Of a stretch of DNA of 64,000 nt, positions 17,621 to 23,306 are shown piece by piece. The notes below the pieces were generated by a model, which was not told the origin of the DNA, searched no databases, and saw nothing but the letters and a program-made list of their open reading frames with translations. Position 1 is the stretch's first letter; the number at the start of each line of letters is the position of its first letter. The position numbers and the translations under genes were made by a program. The DNA comes from Longimicrobiales bacterium. Its GTDB lineage: Bacteria > Gemmatimonadota > Gemmatimonadetes > Longimicrobiales > Gaopeijiaceae. The stretch spans positions 124,001-188,000 of the forward strand of contig JAQWPM010000012.1 in assembly GCA_029245345.1 (NCBI GenBank), given 5' to 3'.

Positions 17621-19156
17621 TCAGCGGTCTGATACGATGCGCGAGTAACTCTCAGGATTCCATTTCGGGCGTTCCGCAGCATTTGCGATATCGACCCCTA
17701 AGTAGAAAACCAAGCGAGCGATGCGCGCTGCCTTTTCCGTATCGATCCGGTCCGGCTCGTCGTCCCGTCCGTGATAGTCGTCGTGGGTACCGTTGAAGAA
17801 GAAGAGCACCGGCACACCCTTGCGAGCGAAGTTGTAATGGTCCGAACGGAAGTAGAACCGCTCTTCCGGCCATACATCGTCAATCGCAGTCATGCGTAGC
17901 TCGGGATGGTCTCCGTTCACACGATTGAGCGTCTCGCCCAGATCCGAGTGTTCTTTCCCGATCGCCACGATCGTATCCGTCCAATTCCGACCAACCATAT
18001 CAGTGTTCAGGTCGGCAACCATGGATTCGATTGGCACCGTTGGATTCTCCGCGAACCACTCGGAACCCCATAGTCCCTTCTCTTCACCACTCACGAGGAT
18101 GAAGAGGGTCGAACGCTTGGGTGCGACCGGGAGAGAGGCCATCGCTTCGGCCACTTCGATGACGGCGACCGTTCCCGATGCGTCATCGTCCGCTCCATTA
18201 AAGATGGAGTCACCGTTCGCATCCGGTGCACCCATCCCGACGTGGTCCATGTGACCGGAAAAGACCACGTACTCGTTCTTGAGTTCGGGGTCACTGCCTT
18301 CCAGGACCGCAACGACGTTTGGTGCGTCAATCATCTCCGAGCGCATGCTCTGGGAAACGGTGACCTGAAGGTCTTCCACAACCAAGATCTCGACGTCCCC
18401 CTCCGCACGGGCCTGAAGCGGAATCATGTTCACGCCGTGCTCTCGCAAGACTTCCTGGAGTGACTGCGTCCGTACCTGGAGAAGTGGCTCAAACGCATCC
18501 GAGCCACCACCGTTCTCGCCTCCCCATCCTTTCTGAACGCCGGACCCCATAGAACGGCGAGCGTTACTCGCCCAACGCTCATCCTCAGTGGAGTTCGTGA
18601 TGATCACTGAAAGGGCACCTGCCTCCCGCATCTGTCCGAGCGTCTCGAACATTGAACGATCGATGCCCTGGGCATCAGCAGAGAGCACCCAAACCACGTG
18701 AGCGCCCGCAAGCGCGTTGCCGGCGAAGGCGCCATCCATTCCTAGCGATCCCGAGACGAGAGCAAGCCGCCCGGTGGCCTCTCCTTCAGCGGAAGCACCA
18801 AACAGCGGGAGCAGATCCTCTCCGAACGAGAGGCGTGCGCCGCCCACGTCCATGCCCGAGGCTTCCGCGTCAACCGTCACTGACCGCAGCGGATAGCGCT
18901 GAATGAAGCCACCGTCCTCGACACCCCCGCGGAGCCCCATGCGGCGGAACTCTGATGCGGCCCATTCAGCGGTCTTGCTCAAACCGGGGCTCGGAGTGTC
19001 TCGTCCCTGCATGGAGTCGTGCGCGATCACTCCAATGCGGTACGCGTAGTCGTCCTGCGTGATGGTCGCGACTGCCTCTTCGAGTCCTGCCTGCTGGGCC
19101 GATAGTGCTGCCGGGGCCAGAAGGGCGACGGCAATCGCCCGGAAAGTCTTCGTCAT
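17621..19156 (-). CDS. Secreted M28-family zinc aminopeptidase with PA-like insert
   Basis: The 511-residue protein has a signal peptide (FRAIAVALLAPAALSAQQ). The C-terminal half carries the M28 metal ligands in order: VVFSGHMDHVGMG, FNGADDDASGTVAVIEVAEA, VSGEEKGLWGSEWF, VADLNTDMVGRN and DDYH. Between signal peptide and catalytic domain lies an approximately 200-residue region with a PA-like insert (GAHVVWVLSADAQGI). It removes N-terminal amino acids from peptides outside the cytoplasm. ATG 19156 was chosen because the signal peptide begins there; the frame is open further up without homology. Confidence 0.9.
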   Translation of the reverse strand: MTKTFRAIAVALLAPAALSAQQAGLEEAVATITQDDYAYRIGVIAHDSMQGRDTPSPGLSKTAEWAASEFRRMGLRGGVEDGGFIQRYPLRSVTVDAEASGMDVGGARLSFGEDLLPLFGASAEGEATGRLALVSGSLGMDGAFAGNALAGAHVVWVLSADAQGIDRSMFETLGQMREAGALSVIITNSTEDERWASNARRSMGSGVQKGWGGENGGGSDAFEPLLQVRTQSLQEVLREHGVNMIPLQARAEGDVEILVVEDLQVTVSQSMRSEMIDAPNVVAVLEGSDPELKNEYVVFSGHMDHVGMGAPDANGDSIFNGADDDASGTVAVIEVAEAMASLPVAPKRSTLFILVSGEEKGLWGSEWFAENPTVPIESMVADLNTDMVGRNWTDTIVAIGKEHSDLGETLNRVNGDHPELRMTAIDDVWPEERFYFRSDHYNFARKGVPVLFFFNGTHDDYHGRDDEPDRIDTEKAARIARLVFYLGVDIANAAERPKWNPESYSRIVSDR

Positions 19157-19194: not shown

Positions 19195-19238
19195 CTGAAC
19201 AAAAAAGCGGCGGCACACCAGTGTTGGTGCGCCGCCGC
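19195..19238 (-). terminator. Intrinsic terminator after the VIT-sigma-anti-sigma operon
   Basis: A 14-base stem pairs 19207-19220 with 19225-19238 (one A-C mismatch) around a 4-base loop. On the minus strand it is followed by six T residues (19206-19201). It lies 22 bases after the anti-sigma stop and ends the three-gene operon. Confidence 0.85.
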
Positions 19239-19260: not shown

Positions 19261-20433
19261 TTACGAGGCGCCATCCAGTCGTTCGAGGAGCGCCTGCAGC
19301 TCTTCGACGGTGCGGTTGGCGCGCATGATGAGCCACCCACCATCGCGGGGAGTGATCACACCCGCCTTCCCATCCTCCGGGAACGGATCCAAGTCATCTG
19401 GATCCACACCCTCGGGAAGGTGCAGCAACTCGAGTATCTCCCCGTCCTCGAGCTCTTGAAGAACCCGGACGCCCCCGGCGGTCACACCTTCTGAAATCCA
19501 GGACATATCGATCAACTCGAGTCCGCTAATCACAAACGGGGGCGCATCCCCTACATGTCGATCAGGATCCTCTTCGTCTGAGTGGTTCGACGGGACCAGG
19601 GACAGGCCGGCCGTGGCCTTCCGGGCCGACGTAACCACGTCCGGCCGCCGGCCCTCAGCCCTCAGTACACTGGTGGCGGCGTAGCGCTCAGCCGCCGGTG
19701 CGAGCGCCACCAACTCTGATCCAGAGACTCCGAGCGGCTCTGGCGACTCCTCTGGCGCGGGTGGTCCAGACTGGTCCACGCCTGATTCCGCAGAGTCCAC
19801 AAACTGACGGAATACCGCAGGTGCCTCCGCCGTCATCTCCCGCAATCCGGTCCTCGGCAGTGCATCCGTCATCGATTCCTGGACGGGTGACGCGGCCCTC
19901 TCGACGTCCTCCCGGACTCGATCAGGTGCTGCCTGCGCCACAACATCAGAAGAGGTGGTGGCCGAGGTGGCCGCTGCGACCAAGTCCTCGTCGTCCGCCG
20001 TCACCTCGAGTCCCGCGAGCTCCTCAGAGAGAGACCGCAACGGAGCACGTGGGGCCGACGGAACCTCAATCGGATCCATCATGCCAAGCGGAATCACTTC
20101 TCCGCCTCGCAGCATCCAGCCTGCTCCTACCGCCAACACCACAGAGGCGGCCCAACCCATTCTGTAGAGACGACCACTGGTGCCGGTCGGCTCAACCCGC
20201 ACGGCAGCAGCTCGGGACCGGAGGTCCTCGAGCGGAGGCATATCCAACGGAGGCAAGATTCCGCCCAGAATCGCGATCGCCTCATCACGGACGGCCCCAG
20301 CCTCGCCCAACTGGATCGAACACTGTGTACATCTCGCAAGGTGGTCCCGAACCGAATCGGCCTCGCCACCGGGGAGTTGATCGAGAGCTCCATCCAAGTA
20401 GGCATGAAGGATCCCTTCGCTAACGTGCGACAT
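19261..20433 (-). CDS. Large transmembrane anti-sigma factor with zf-HC2 finger
   Basis: The 390-residue protein begins SEGILHAYLDGALDQLPGGE and carries HLARCTQC, the anti-sigma zinc finger that grips ECF sigma factors. One membrane span lies at about 101-120 (YRMGWAASVVLAVGAGWML). The periplasmic part is about 270 residues: a long Ala/Glu/Pro-rich linker and then a folded-looking C-terminal segment (VISGLELIDMSWISEGVTAG, GGWLIMRANRTVEELQALLERL). This outside domain is far larger than in most anti-sigma factors. ATG 20433 overlaps the sigma gene by 14 bases. It is the last gene of the operon. Confidence 0.85.
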   Translation of the reverse strand: MSHVSEGILHAYLDGALDQLPGGEADSVRDHLARCTQCSIQLGEAGAVRDEAIAILGGILPPLDMPPLEDLRSRAAAVRVEPTGTSGRLYRMGWAASVVLAVGAGWMLRGGEVIPLGMMDPIEVPSAPRAPLRSLSEELAGLEVTADDEDLVAAATSATTSSDVVAQAAPDRVREDVERAASPVQESMTDALPRTGLREMTAEAPAVFRQFVDSAESGVDQSGPPAPEESPEPLGVSGSELVALAPAAERYAATSVLRAEGRRPDVVTSARKATAGLSLVPSNHSDEEDPDRHVGDAPPFVISGLELIDMSWISEGVTAGGVRVLQELEDGEILELLHLPEGVDPDDLDPFPEDGKAGVITPRDGGWLIMRANRTVEELQALLERLDGAS

Positions 20434-20932
20434 TGGCCTTCTCCGTCTCCGTCTCGTGATATGCATCTGCTAGACGGCGGCGGGCACGTGCGAGCGTGGT
20501 CCCAATCGCCCCCACCGCCAGCCCCGCCTGCCTGGCAATTTCCGTGTAGCTCTGTCCGGCGTCCCACAAAAGGAGGACATCGCGGTCGCGGTCACTGAGT
20601 CCTTCCAAGGCCGCCTTCACACGGACCATCCTCTCTTGCTCGGACAACTGATCGTTCAAGTCGGGAGCTGAAGCTTGGAGGTCCTCGGTCTCACTCTTGA
20701 GAAGGGTGAGGTGTCGCTTGCGCCGTATTACAGTGCGGGCTTCGTCACGAGCTAGGTTGGCGGCAACTTGAAAGAGCCACGCCCGGGGTTTTTTGGGCTC
20801 GTGGCGCAGCGCGCGCACGAACGCCTCCTGCGCGAGATCCTGAGCCCGTTCGACATCCCACACCTTCCGGTGCAGAAAGCGCACGAGGTCGGGATAGGTG
20901 TTCCGATATACGTCGGTCCAGTCCACGCTCAT
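20420..20932 (-). CDS. ECF sigma factor of the VIT/vWA operon
   Basis: The 170-residue protein has region 2 (VYRNTYPDLVRFLHRKVWD, DLAQEAFVRALRHE, WLFQVAANLARDEART) and region 4 (LEGLSDRDRDVLLLWDAGQS, YTEIARQAGLAVGAIGTTLARARRRL). Its ATG (20932-20930) overlaps the stop of the VIT/vWA gene by 4 bases, and its end overlaps the anti-sigma start by 14 bases, so the three are translationally coupled. It likely recruits RNA polymerase to an operon-linked regulon; the target promoters are unknown. Confidence 0.88.
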   Translation of the reverse strand: MSVDWTDVYRNTYPDLVRFLHRKVWDVERAQDLAQEAFVRALRHEPKKPRAWLFQVAANLARDEARTVIRRKRHLTLLKSETEDLQASAPDLNDQLSEQERMVRVKAALEGLSDRDRDVLLLWDAGQSYTEIARQAGLAVGAIGTTLARARRRLADAYHETETEKANVAR

Positions 20933-23181
20933 CGCACCGCCTCCCCATTTCGAAATGCATCTACCAGCTCGGTGAGCCGATCGTTGTCGATCTCGTCGAG
21001 CCCCGTGTCAGAAATACTGATGCTCATCTGCTGCCCAGCAATGATCACACGATCCAATTCACCGAATACCGGTGCGAGTTCCGGAAGGGCGCGCACGAAT
21101 TCGAAGTACGCGGTGCTGAACGCTTTCACTTCGATCACTTCCAGAACATCGTCGTGCGTCGCATCCGTCCATACGCCACGCTCTAGCGTGAAGGTCCGCC
21201 CCGCCACCGCACGTACGGTCGCCGTCTCACCCCCAGCGTATTCCTCTTCCATTTGTCTGAGCTCGTCGAGCGTCGTCGCTTCCCTCCGCTTGCGTGCGGC
21301 GGACGCGTCTCGCACAGCACGCTGTCCGCTGGCCTGTGCAGGGGAGTTCAGCGTCCCGACGGCGGTGCGGGCGGCCCCTGTGACCATCAAGCGCTGCATA
21401 TCCGGCATGCCCGGCGTAGCAGCTACGATGTCCGGTTCCTGTACGAGGTAGGACGTGTACTTGCTCGGCAGACCGTACCGGAGCGCCACGCCACGTATCT
21501 CAGCGATCAACGACTCGGACGCACCTTCCGTCCAGATCTGGCGCTCGAGGTGTCCCAATTTTCTGGAGGCCCAGAGCCGAGGGATGTACCCGTTCGCTTC
21601 AGTCGCTTCCGGAAAACGAACTTCAGTCGTGAACGTCAGAGCCGCCCCAGCTCGGCTCCCGTCAACGCTCACCCGGCTTTGCCCATCTCCCTCATAACGC
21701 CCGAACAGCACCAACTCCTGCCCGACAAAGACGTCGGGGATTCGAACGGGAAAGACGTCGGTCAATCGCGTCGGGCCACCGGAGAGTGCGATGTCTGTGA
21801 GCACAGGGTGCCGGATCTTCGCAGTGAGGAGCCCGACGACCCTCTCCACATTCTCGCCCGGCTGCACGTAATCGGTGCTCCCCCGGCCAGCCTCGCCCAA
21901 ACGATCGAGCAGATGGGTGTTCACGTCGTGCCCCACACCAAAGGTGAACACACGTGCCCGACCAGCGACTTTCTCAGCCCGATCAGCCAACCGTTCGGGC
22001 GACTGCTCACCGACCGACGGGAGGCCATCTGTGAGGAACACCACGATCGGGAGCCGCTCCTCGGGGCTCTCGAGCCGGAAGGCCTCTTCAAGCGCCGACC
22101 CAATGTCGGTGCCGCCGTCCGCCACCAACCGCGAAACCCATTCCCGGGCCTCTGCCACTTCGTGCCCGGTCGCCAGAGACCAATCCACGCCACTCATTCT
22201 GACAGAGTTCGAGAACGCGATCAGGCGAAAGCGGTCATCGCGAGAGAGCGACCCCAGGAGCTGGTTCAGCGCCTGTCGCGCCTGGACGATCTTGTCGCCC
22301 GACATGGACCCGGACACGTCCAGCACGACTGTAACGTCCCTGGGCGCCGCTTCTATTCTGAGGCGCTCTGGAGACAACGTCAGCATGAAGTATCCGTCCT
22401 CACCAACAGGACGGTGCGTGGCGAGCGACAGTCCCACGTCCGCTCCCGCGAACGGAAAGAAGATCGATAGCCGACCGAGAACTTCGTCGTCGACGCTGAC
22501 ATCGAGTCCCTCTTCATGCCGACTGACCTCCAAGTCATGGGTCGGAGAGAACGGATCCAAGAAGTCGTGACCGTTCGCCACTTCTATCTCGAACGAGGCT
22601 TCAACCGGCTCAGGAACAGACCTGCCTTCCGGCGTATGGATCCCCGAGCGCCCCATGGTCCCCCGTACCGCGCCAGCATAGACCAGTTGAAGGGCATCAC
22701 CTGCGCGCTTCAGCACCTGCGTGTATCGGAGCGTCACCTTCCGCTCCTGACCGGGCTCGATAGGGAAGACACGTGCCCGCAAGAGTCCGTGTCCGGCCAA
22801 CTCGATGAGGGCAGGGTCGGCCCTGCGACGGACGATGTCTTCATAGATGCGCCGGGCCTGGCCTGCGTCCATGATCTCGCCGCGGAGTTCTGTGTCGCCC
22901 TGAAAGAGGGAAAAGCCCTCGAAGACAGCCTCACTCGGGAGCGGGTATAGATAGTCTCCCTCTGCGACCCGATTTCCGTCGTTCACGAACCATTCAGTCA
23001 CCTCGACCACAGCCACACGGCCATGGACGCGAACACGAACGTCACTGCGCACTTTCTCCACAGAGAACCCGCCCCGCAGAACGGGAAGTTCGACCCATCC
23101 CTGTGCCGACGCTGGAGCGGCCGCCCCCATAAGAGCCACCACCAATCCCATCGATACCATCCACCGGCCGGGTGTCCGCAT
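20929..23181 (-). CDS. Secreted VIT and von Willebrand A domain protein
   Basis: The 750-residue protein begins at ATG 23181 with AGGAGG a few bases upstream and a signal peptide (VSMGLVVALMGAAAPASAQG). The VIT domain covers about 25-150 (VEVTEWFVNDGNRVAEGDYL, ARRIYEDIVRRRADPALIE, RVFPIEPGQERKVTLRYTQV). The vWA domain starts near 280 with the MIDAS motif DVSGSMSG, so it likely binds a divalent metal and a protein partner. The C-terminal 200 residues include a helical stretch with GVALRYGLPSKYTSYL. It heads the VIT-sigma-anti-sigma operon. In animals VIT/vWA proteins are matrix ligands; here the role is not known. Confidence 0.88.
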   Translation of the reverse strand: MRTPGRWMVSMGLVVALMGAAAPASAQGWVELPVLRGGFSVEKVRSDVRVRVHGRVAVVEVTEWFVNDGNRVAEGDYLYPLPSEAVFEGFSLFQGDTELRGEIMDAGQARRIYEDIVRRRADPALIELAGHGLLRARVFPIEPGQERKVTLRYTQVLKRAGDALQLVYAGAVRGTMGRSGIHTPEGRSVPEPVEASFEIEVANGHDFLDPFSPTHDLEVSRHEEGLDVSVDDEVLGRLSIFFPFAGADVGLSLATHRPVGEDGYFMLTLSPERLRIEAAPRDVTVVLDVSGSMSGDKIVQARQALNQLLGSLSRDDRFRLIAFSNSVRMSGVDWSLATGHEVAEAREWVSRLVADGGTDIGSALEEAFRLESPEERLPIVVFLTDGLPSVGEQSPERLADRAEKVAGRARVFTFGVGHDVNTHLLDRLGEAGRGSTDYVQPGENVERVVGLLTAKIRHPVLTDIALSGGPTRLTDVFPVRIPDVFVGQELVLFGRYEGDGQSRVSVDGSRAGAALTFTTEVRFPEATEANGYIPRLWASRKLGHLERQIWTEGASESLIAEIRGVALRYGLPSKYTSYLVQEPDIVAATPGMPDMQRLMVTGAARTAVGTLNSPAQASGQRAVRDASAARKRREATTLDELRQMEEEYAGGETATVRAVAGRTFTLERGVWTDATHDDVLEVIEVKAFSTAYFEFVRALPELAPVFGELDRVIIAGQQMSISISDTGLDEIDNDRLTELVDAFRNGEAVR

Positions 23182-23306
23182 CACATTCCTCCTGTGTCTT
23201 TCCTCCATCGGCCTATATGACGCTCCGGGCGCACCCCCTTGCACAGGACGACCCTAATTGACTCATTCCAGGTCCGGAAATACGAACTGATTCGGAGAAT
23301 TTACCC

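What the first reader, a model, noticed from the sequence alone, without database searches (positions are those of the whole stretch)
19261..23181. Coupled VIT/vWA, ECF sigma and large anti-sigma operon
A secreted VIT/vWA protein, an ECF sigma factor and a transmembrane anti-sigma factor are joined by 4- and 14-base overlaps and closed by an intrinsic terminator. The anti-sigma factor has about 270 periplasmic residues with a folded C-terminal segment. I infer an outside-in signalling unit in which the VIT/vWA protein, with an intact MIDAS motif, binds the periplasmic part of the anti-sigma factor. I know of no described mechanism of this type.
Basis: partly seen in the sequence, partly recalled or inferred. 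Interest (0 to 1): 0.55.

Follow-up and report, generated by a model that had tools for sequence, protein, structure and literature searches.

The report
vWA-protein-linked sigma/anti-sigma switch
A secreted von Willebrand-type protein, a gene-switching sigma factor and the membrane protein thought to restrain it form one self-activating unit across a bacterial phylum, and in some relatives a vWA protein and the restrainer are one molecule, which suggests that the vWA part helps the switch read the cell surface.

Summary
The operon is real: VIT/vWA, ECF sigma and zinc-finger anti-sigma, overlaps of 4 and 14 bases, terminator. Sigma follows VIT in 29 of 29 loci of relatives, anti-sigma follows in 28. 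New: a promoter, TGTGCAA-N16-CGTC, precedes 45 of 45 operons examined (38 exact), and in other genomes YfbK-type vWA, DUF4139, SIMPL and other envelope genes, mostly where the sigma ortholog exists. The vWA gene is thus an output of this sigma. Of 28 sigma-bearing genomes 18 lack VIT; 16 of these 18 have a YfbK-type vWA gene. In genus g64 (probably Gemmatimonas) anti-sigma and YfbK-vWA are one polypeptide in 7 of 7 genomes with YfbK_C, which supports a vWA/anti-sigma link. The anti-sigma C-terminal domain resembles that of RseB/MucB (weak) and persists where VIT is lost. Binding, ligand and direction are untested. The mechanism class has precedents (FoxA/FoxR, RseB/RseA, PbpP/RsiP); a vWA partner I found in no paper searched.

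The parts
23219..23245 (-). ECF-type promoter TGTGCAA-N16-CGTC (-35 at 23239-23245, -10 at 23219-23222), 37 bases before the VIT/vWA ATG
   Evidence: conserved in 45 of 45 operon promoters examined, 38 without mismatch, spacer 16 in all although 15-17 was allowed; only exact copy in this genome
20929..23181 (-). VIT/vWA protein, 750 aa, secreted, ITIH-heavy-chain-like
   Evidence: PDB profile hits ITIH4 and ITIH1; model vs ITIH1 Foldseek E 2.7e-38
22723..23043 (-). VIT domain
   Evidence: Pfam PF08487
21877..22338 (-). vWA domain with invariant MIDAS
   Evidence: Pfam PF00092/PF13768; invariant columns
20947..21216 (-). C-terminal beta/alpha domain of the VIT/vWA protein (residues 656-745)
   Evidence: AlphaFold2 model, mean pLDDT about 80-90 there; no fold search of this domain alone
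20420..20932 (-). ECF sigma factor, 170 aa
   Evidence: alignment A1
19261..20433 (-). membrane anti-sigma factor, 390 aa
20254..20433 (-). anti-sigma zinc-binding domain, Hx3Cx2C
   Evidence: zf-HC2 hit; H31, C35, C38 invariant
20098..20172 (-). transmembrane helix, conserved WAASVVLA-GxGW
   Evidence: alignment; read by eye
19264..19521 (-). periplasmic C-terminal domain, resembling the RseB/MucB C-terminal domain
   Evidence: model pLDDT 80, pTM 0.71; VIA Z 7.1-7.9 to five RseB/MucB entries, residues 211-316; Foldseek E only 0.1-0.5
19207..19238 (-). intrinsic terminator

Best explanation
It is an autoregulated ECF sigma/anti-sigma switch whose extracytoplasmic arm involves a vWA protein. 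The zinc-binding anti-sigma factor holds the sigma factor at the membrane. When its periplasmic part is released or cut, sigma is freed and fires TGTGCAA-N16-CGTC promoters: its own operon first, which makes more VIT/vWA, sigma and anti-sigma. The vWA protein is both product and regulator of the switch: it acts on the anti-sigma factor's periplasmic part, in trans as a secreted VIT/vWA (here) or in cis as a fused YfbK-type vWA (genus g64), and its MIDAS site is the likely ligand-binding site. Shown: the operon, its conservation, the conserved promoter element and its distribution, the fusion. Inferred: that this sigma recognises the element, that anti-sigma inhibits sigma, that vWA acts on anti-sigma. 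Guessed: the ligand, and whether vWA keeps the switch off (as FoxA does for FoxR) or turns it on (as PbpP does for RsiP).
For: VIT-sigma order in 29 of 29 loci, anti-sigma next in 28. VIT and sigma distances correlate, r 0.90 over 27 loci (near copies inflate it). Promoter in 45 of 45 operons, and upstream of YfbK-vWA genes in 15 of 19 tested in sigma-bearing genomes against 0 of 11 in sigma-less ones; DUF4139 5 of 5 against 0 of 2. Stand-alone divergent VIT genes of family f3: motif upstream in the 2 genomes with sigma, in none of 6 without. Anti-sigma::vWA fusion directly after sigma in 7 of 7 g64 genomes with YfbK_C. A Rhizobium plasmid has an ECF sigma gene overlapping by 4 bases a gene for a protein with a short N-terminus, a TM helix and a YfbK-type vWA. 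One anti-sigma factor (G030) carries the CarboxypepD_reg-like domain of the vWA proteins. MIDAS invariant in 25 of 25.
Against: The pair exists without VIT in 18 of 28 sigma-bearing genomes, and two of these (G001, G006) lack YfbK too. The anti-sigma C-terminal domain is conserved without VIT. Regulon members such as DUF4139, SIMPL and fasciclin proteins show that being driven by this promoter does not make a protein a regulator. No contact between VIT/vWA and anti-sigma was modelled. The profile comparison of the two shows no shared domain. The VIT/YfbK exclusion is not shown to be independent of phylogeny: 2 usable pairs, sign test inconclusive.
Confidence: 0.52

Rival explanations
1. The vWA protein is only an effector of an envelope-stress regulon; the signal reaches the anti-sigma factor some other way (for example through its RseB-like C-terminal domain and a site-1 protease), and the operon merely co-expresses an important target.
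For: The same promoter drives unrelated envelope genes: DUF4139, SIMPL, fasciclin, an alpha-2-macroglobulin-like protein. The pair is kept without VIT in 18 of 28 genomes. The C-terminal domain is kept in G001 without VIT.
Against: Does not explain why anti-sigma and vWA are one polypeptide in g64 nor the sigma plus TM-anchored vWA pair on the Rhizobium plasmid. In the window's genome no other copy of the element clearly stands before a gene, so the regulon would be one effector plus its regulators.
Confidence: 0.36
2. The anti-sigma factor senses through its zinc site (redox or metal), and the periplasmic part is a passive anchor.
For: Hx3Cx2C is invariant in 23 of 23 aligned anti-sigma factors.
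Against: PMC7406223 (passages read) reports zinc motifs in about half of membrane-bound class I anti-sigma factors and argues for a structural role. G013's anti-sigma has lost the zinc ligands but sigma, promoter and motif-bearing targets are there.
Confidence: 0.06
3. Adjacency is neutral: VIT/vWA happens to be co-transcribed and has its own unrelated role.
For: VIT is gained or lost repeatedly (at least 5 changes forced by well-supported branches of the sigma tree).
Against: In the 29 loci it is always the first gene of this operon, and elsewhere a YfbK-vWA gene stands under the same promoter.
Confidence: 0.06

Closest known systems
Cell-surface signalling: FoxA TonB-dependent transducer / FoxR anti-sigma / FoxI sigma (PMC11637429, abstract and outline read)
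   Same: ECF sigma, membrane anti-sigma, and an extracytoplasmic partner that is itself a target of the sigma and contacts the anti-sigma C-terminal domain
   Different: Partner is an outer-membrane receptor with a signalling domain, not a secreted vWA protein; contact is shown there, not here
RpoE/RseA/RseB (E. coli) and AlgU/MucA/MucB (PMC8103513, passages read)
   Same: Membrane anti-sigma; the periplasmic domain here resembles the RseB/MucB C-terminal domain of that pathway
   Different: RseB is a separate protein; here a similar small domain sits at the end of the anti-sigma itself. No vWA protein belongs to the rpoE operons (recalled)
PbpP/RsiP/SigP of Bacillus thuringiensis (PMC8092216, outline read)
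   Same: A separate extracytoplasmic sensor protein needed to switch an ECF sigma through its anti-sigma
   Different: The sensor is a penicillin-binding protein
RsgI anti-sigma factors of Clostridium thermocellum (PMC12203970, abstract and outline read)
   Same: Anti-sigma factors that sense outside the cell and signal by intramembrane proteolysis; compare the cis anti-sigma::vWA form
   Different: Substrate-sensing domains of other kinds and SigI-type sigma factors (recalled)
Inter-alpha-trypsin inhibitor heavy chains H1/H4 and 'marine proteobacterial sortase target' VIT/vWA proteins
   Same: VIT plus vWA core over about 540-565 residues
   Different: 271.9 bits against a cut-off of 551.65 for the sortase-target family; extra C-terminal domain; no sigma linkage known to me

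Membership tests
ECF sigma factor with class I (ASDI/zinc) anti-sigma | sigma with regions 2 and 4 only | tested here: met
   Sigma70_r2 and Sigma70_r4_2 over cut-off, 170 aa
ECF sigma factor with class I (ASDI/zinc) anti-sigma | adjacent anti-sigma with Hx3Cx2C domain and TM helix | tested here: met
ECF sigma factor with class I (ASDI/zinc) anti-sigma | autoregulated promoter | tested here: met
   conserved element in 45 of 45 operons; dependence on sigma itself not tested
ECF sigma factor with class I (ASDI/zinc) anti-sigma | assignment to a numbered ECF group | not testable with these tools
   classification paper not held; its group models are not in the libraries
Cell-surface signalling (FecA/FoxA type) | TonB-dependent outer-membrane transducer with signalling domain as partner | tested here: not met
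   the partner gene is VIT/vWA
RseA/RseB (MucA/MucB) system | separate periplasmic RseB protein encoded in the operon | tested here: not met
   the operon has three genes, none RseB; only a C-terminal-domain-like part, fused to the anti-sigma
RseB/MucB C-terminal domain | shared fold | tested here: inconclusive
   VIA Z 7.1-7.9 for five entries of the family, next unrelated row 5.0, but Z under 8, Foldseek E 0.1 and top row TM1622 at Z 8.0
VIT/vWA (ITIH-like) | VIT followed by vWA with MIDAS | tested here: met
Marine proteobacterial sortase target (TIGR03788) | score over the equivalog cut-off | tested here: not met
   271.9 of 551.65 bits

The most novel reading that the evidence does not exclude
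Secreted vWA proteins of two families (VIT/vWA and YfbK) are interchangeable extracytoplasmic signalling subunits of ECF switches, working in trans or fused to the anti-sigma factor, in Gemmatimonadota and, with another sigma, in Rhizobium; MIDAS-dependent binding of a surface ligand sets anti-sigma stability. YfbK, uncharacterised since it was named in E. coli, would then belong to an anti-sigma sensor family.
Probability: 0.35. Interest if true: 0.75.

Novelty: new variant of a known kind. Interest (0 to 1): 0.6.

Why it matters
VIT/vWA and YfbK proteins are widespread and of unknown function in bacteria. A conserved promoter, a regulon and a natural fusion give them a concrete, testable role in transmembrane signalling, and the defined promoter lets the regulon be read from any Gemmatimonadota genome. 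A genome that is probably a cultured Gemmatimonas (G075, by recalled size) carries the fused form, so the question could be tested now.

Tried and rejected
A sequence link between VIT/vWA and the anti-sigma C-terminal domain: none. A wider regulon in the window's own genome: with one mismatch in 12 bases, 7 sites against 38 of the reversed control, none of the other six clearly before a gene. A phylogeny-corrected test of VIT/YfbK exclusion: inconclusive. My first idea that sigma had been lost beside the f3 VIT genes was wrong: they are divergent paralogs, two of them with the promoter element. The M28 peptidase downstream was considered as a fourth part and left out: a terminator lies between and it was not found beside the sigma in several relatives.

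Dropped rows and limits: L020 and L021 were left out of the promoter count (5' end missing, broken frame). Motif distances of 814 and 923 bp (G035, G041) are doubtful, and the start of L060's VIT gene was mis-set. In one search G050's divergent YfbK gene was not tested (placeholder locus name in my script); the motif there is seen. G009 and G054 could hardly be searched (broken or cut frame), and G048 and G050 each have a second YfbK gene without the motif. In one search the six sigma-less f3 stretches were scanned at up to one mismatch; one (G036) had a one-mismatch site, but downstream of VIT. The f4 distances (40 of 61 sigma-bearing f4 genomes; 27 at 2185-2377 bp, 13 at 36-81 bp; typed into) come from a motif list that was cut short, and the 27 gaps were not checked to be VIT genes. 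Fisher values ignore relatedness.
Full report
Observation. The window is part of a 3.79 Mb Gemmatimonadota-like genome (G000:C12:124001-188000; the named relatives are all Gemmatimonadota MAGs). On the - strand lie a VIT/vWA gene (20929-23181), an ECF sigma gene (20420-20932) and an anti-sigma gene (19261-20433) with 4- and 14-base overlaps, closed by a 14-pair terminator. Domain matches are; the zinc finger of the window's own anti-sigma is just under its cut-off, but all 23 aligned anti-sigma factors match the family.

Conservation. A scan of the species-genome collection with the VIT/vWA protein gave 19 loci, and a search of 59 genomes (the window's own and 58 relatives) gave ten strong full-length loci. 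In all 29 the sigma gene follows, and in 28 the anti-sigma gene follows that (the other contig ends). Sigma and anti-sigma overlap by 14, 17 or 23 bases in 26 of 28; VIT and sigma overlap by 4 bases in 6 of 29 and are otherwise 3 to 107 bases apart, once 292. The anti-sigma factor evolves fastest: 22-42% identity to the window's, against 59-80% for sigma and 45-65% for VIT/vWA.

Promoter. Upstream of the VIT start in 27 of 27 loci with a usable 5' end there is TGTGCAA-N16-CGTC with at most two mismatches, 25 of them exact. The sigma profile separates cleanly: 28 of 59 genomes have an ortholog at 215-292 bits, the next match has 154. Ten of the 28 have VIT in the operon. In the other 18 the same element lies upstream of sigma (13 exact, 5 with one mismatch; two of them 814 and 923 bp away and doubtful), and anti-sigma follows. 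Exact copies against a reversed control: 67 to 24 in sigma-bearing genomes, 10 to 16 in the rest (counted by hand; test). In the window's genome the only exact copy is the operon's own, and no one-mismatch copy clearly stands before a gene.

Regulon. Many of the other exact copies are inside genes, as chance predicts. Those between genes in sigma-bearing genomes mostly precede envelope genes: YfbK-type vWA proteins, often with a CarboxypepD_reg domain; DUF4139 proteins; SIMPL proteins (G038, G075); a fasciclin protein (G006); an alpha-2-macroglobulin-like protein (G053); a beta-propeller protein (G048). For YfbK genes the element (at most one mismatch) was found in 15 of 19 tested in sigma-bearing genomes and 0 of 11 in sigma-less ones; for DUF4139 in 5 of 5 and 0 of 2. 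YfbK genes occur in 16 of the 18 sigma-bearing genomes without VIT, but in 1 of the 10 with VIT. This swap is suggestive, not phylogenetically proven.

Loss of VIT. In G001, of the same genus, the neighbourhood is syntenic (M14-like peptidase, saccharopine dehydrogenase-like gene, promoter, sigma, anti-sigma, M28 peptidase; the first two names are by eye) and VIT is missing between promoter and sigma. Its anti-sigma C-terminal domain is still 57 of 86 identical to the window's, about as much as the zinc domain (38 of 60) and TM helix (17 of 25) and far above the linker (66 of 183). The domain therefore has a job that does not need VIT.

Fusion. In family f5 the same promoter precedes two arrangements. 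One is VIT-sigma in G083, G263, G281 and G224 (sigma about 41% identical to the window's), with anti-sigma seen in full in G224. The other is sigma followed by one polypeptide: Hx3Cx2C domain, TM helix, linker, CarboxypepD_reg, vWF_A, VWA, YfbK_C. The second form occurs in 7 of 7 genus-g64 genomes with YfbK_C (G075, G092, G118, G105, G216, G127, G122; three are single-contig genomes), with the exact promoter in 6 of 7 (full Pfam check on G075 only). The five other f5 genomes with YfbK_C have no zinc motif in that frame. G075 has 4,636,964 bases; that it is Gemmatimonas aurantiaca T-27 is my recollection, not a call. On a Rhizobium plasmid an ECF sigma gene overlaps by 4 bases the gene of a 703-aa protein with a short N-terminus, a TM helix and a YfbK-type vWA. 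Only this one of 113 matching Rhizobium records was inspected, and the Bernardetia, Nostoc and Bacteroides records inspected showed no such pair.

Structure. The anti-sigma C-terminal domain models as five strands and a helix (pLDDT 80, pTM 0.71). Foldseek ranks RseB first, with a weak E-value of 0.1. VIA-align gives five RseB/MucB entries Z 7.1-7.9 (85-90 residues, rmsd 3.3-3.6) over residues 211-316 of RseB/MucB; the first row is TM1622 at 8.0 and the next unrelated row 5.0. I read this as a lead, since Z under 8 can be a common arrangement. The VIT/vWA model matches ITIH1 (E 2.7e-38).

Mechanism. Three facts point the same way: a vWA gene is the usual companion of the switch, it stands under the switch's own promoter, and it is physically joined to the anti-sigma factor in one genus. 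The simplest reading is that vWA acts on the anti-sigma factor outside the membrane, in cis or in trans. M50 site-2-type protease genes exist in this genome, as in all 14 control genomes, so release by proteolysis is possible but not specifically supported. The main rival is that vWA is only an effector; the fusion is the argument against it.

Known or new. Anti-sigma factors controlled by a co-encoded extracytoplasmic partner are known (PMC11637429, PMC8092216, PMC8103513). A vWA partner or a vWA-fused anti-sigma factor was not found in eight searches of the held library, which does not hold the ECF reclassification paper I tried, so it may have been listed there.

Noticed in passing
window 17621-19156 (-): An M28-type peptidase gene follows the operon after the terminator and is also found downstream of the sigma/anti-sigma pair in G001, G004, G006, G007, G011, G018, G029; in G009 the anti-sigma frame runs on into it, perhaps a frame error.
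   Followed up: partly
L163 (G013): An anti-sigma ortholog has lost the Hx3Cx2C ligands while sigma, promoter and motif-bearing targets are present.
   Followed up: no
L169 (G041): The anti-sigma candidate ends in what reads like a TonB C-terminal domain instead of the usual domain (by eye).
   Followed up: no
L162:6757-8184 (+) (G030): Anti-sigma factor with a CarbopepD_reg_2 domain in its periplasmic part, the domain otherwise found in vWA targets of the same promoter.
   Followed up: partly
L064, L068 (G048, G050): A divergent VIT/vWA paralog (35-40% identity) stands alone with the promoter element in the two f3 genomes that have the sigma, and without it in six that do not.
   Followed up: yes
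L319 (Rhizobium sp. NXC14 plasmid pRspNXC14b): ECF sigma gene overlapping a TM-anchored YfbK-type vWA gene by 4 bases, an untested sigma/anti-sigma-like pair.
   Followed up: partly
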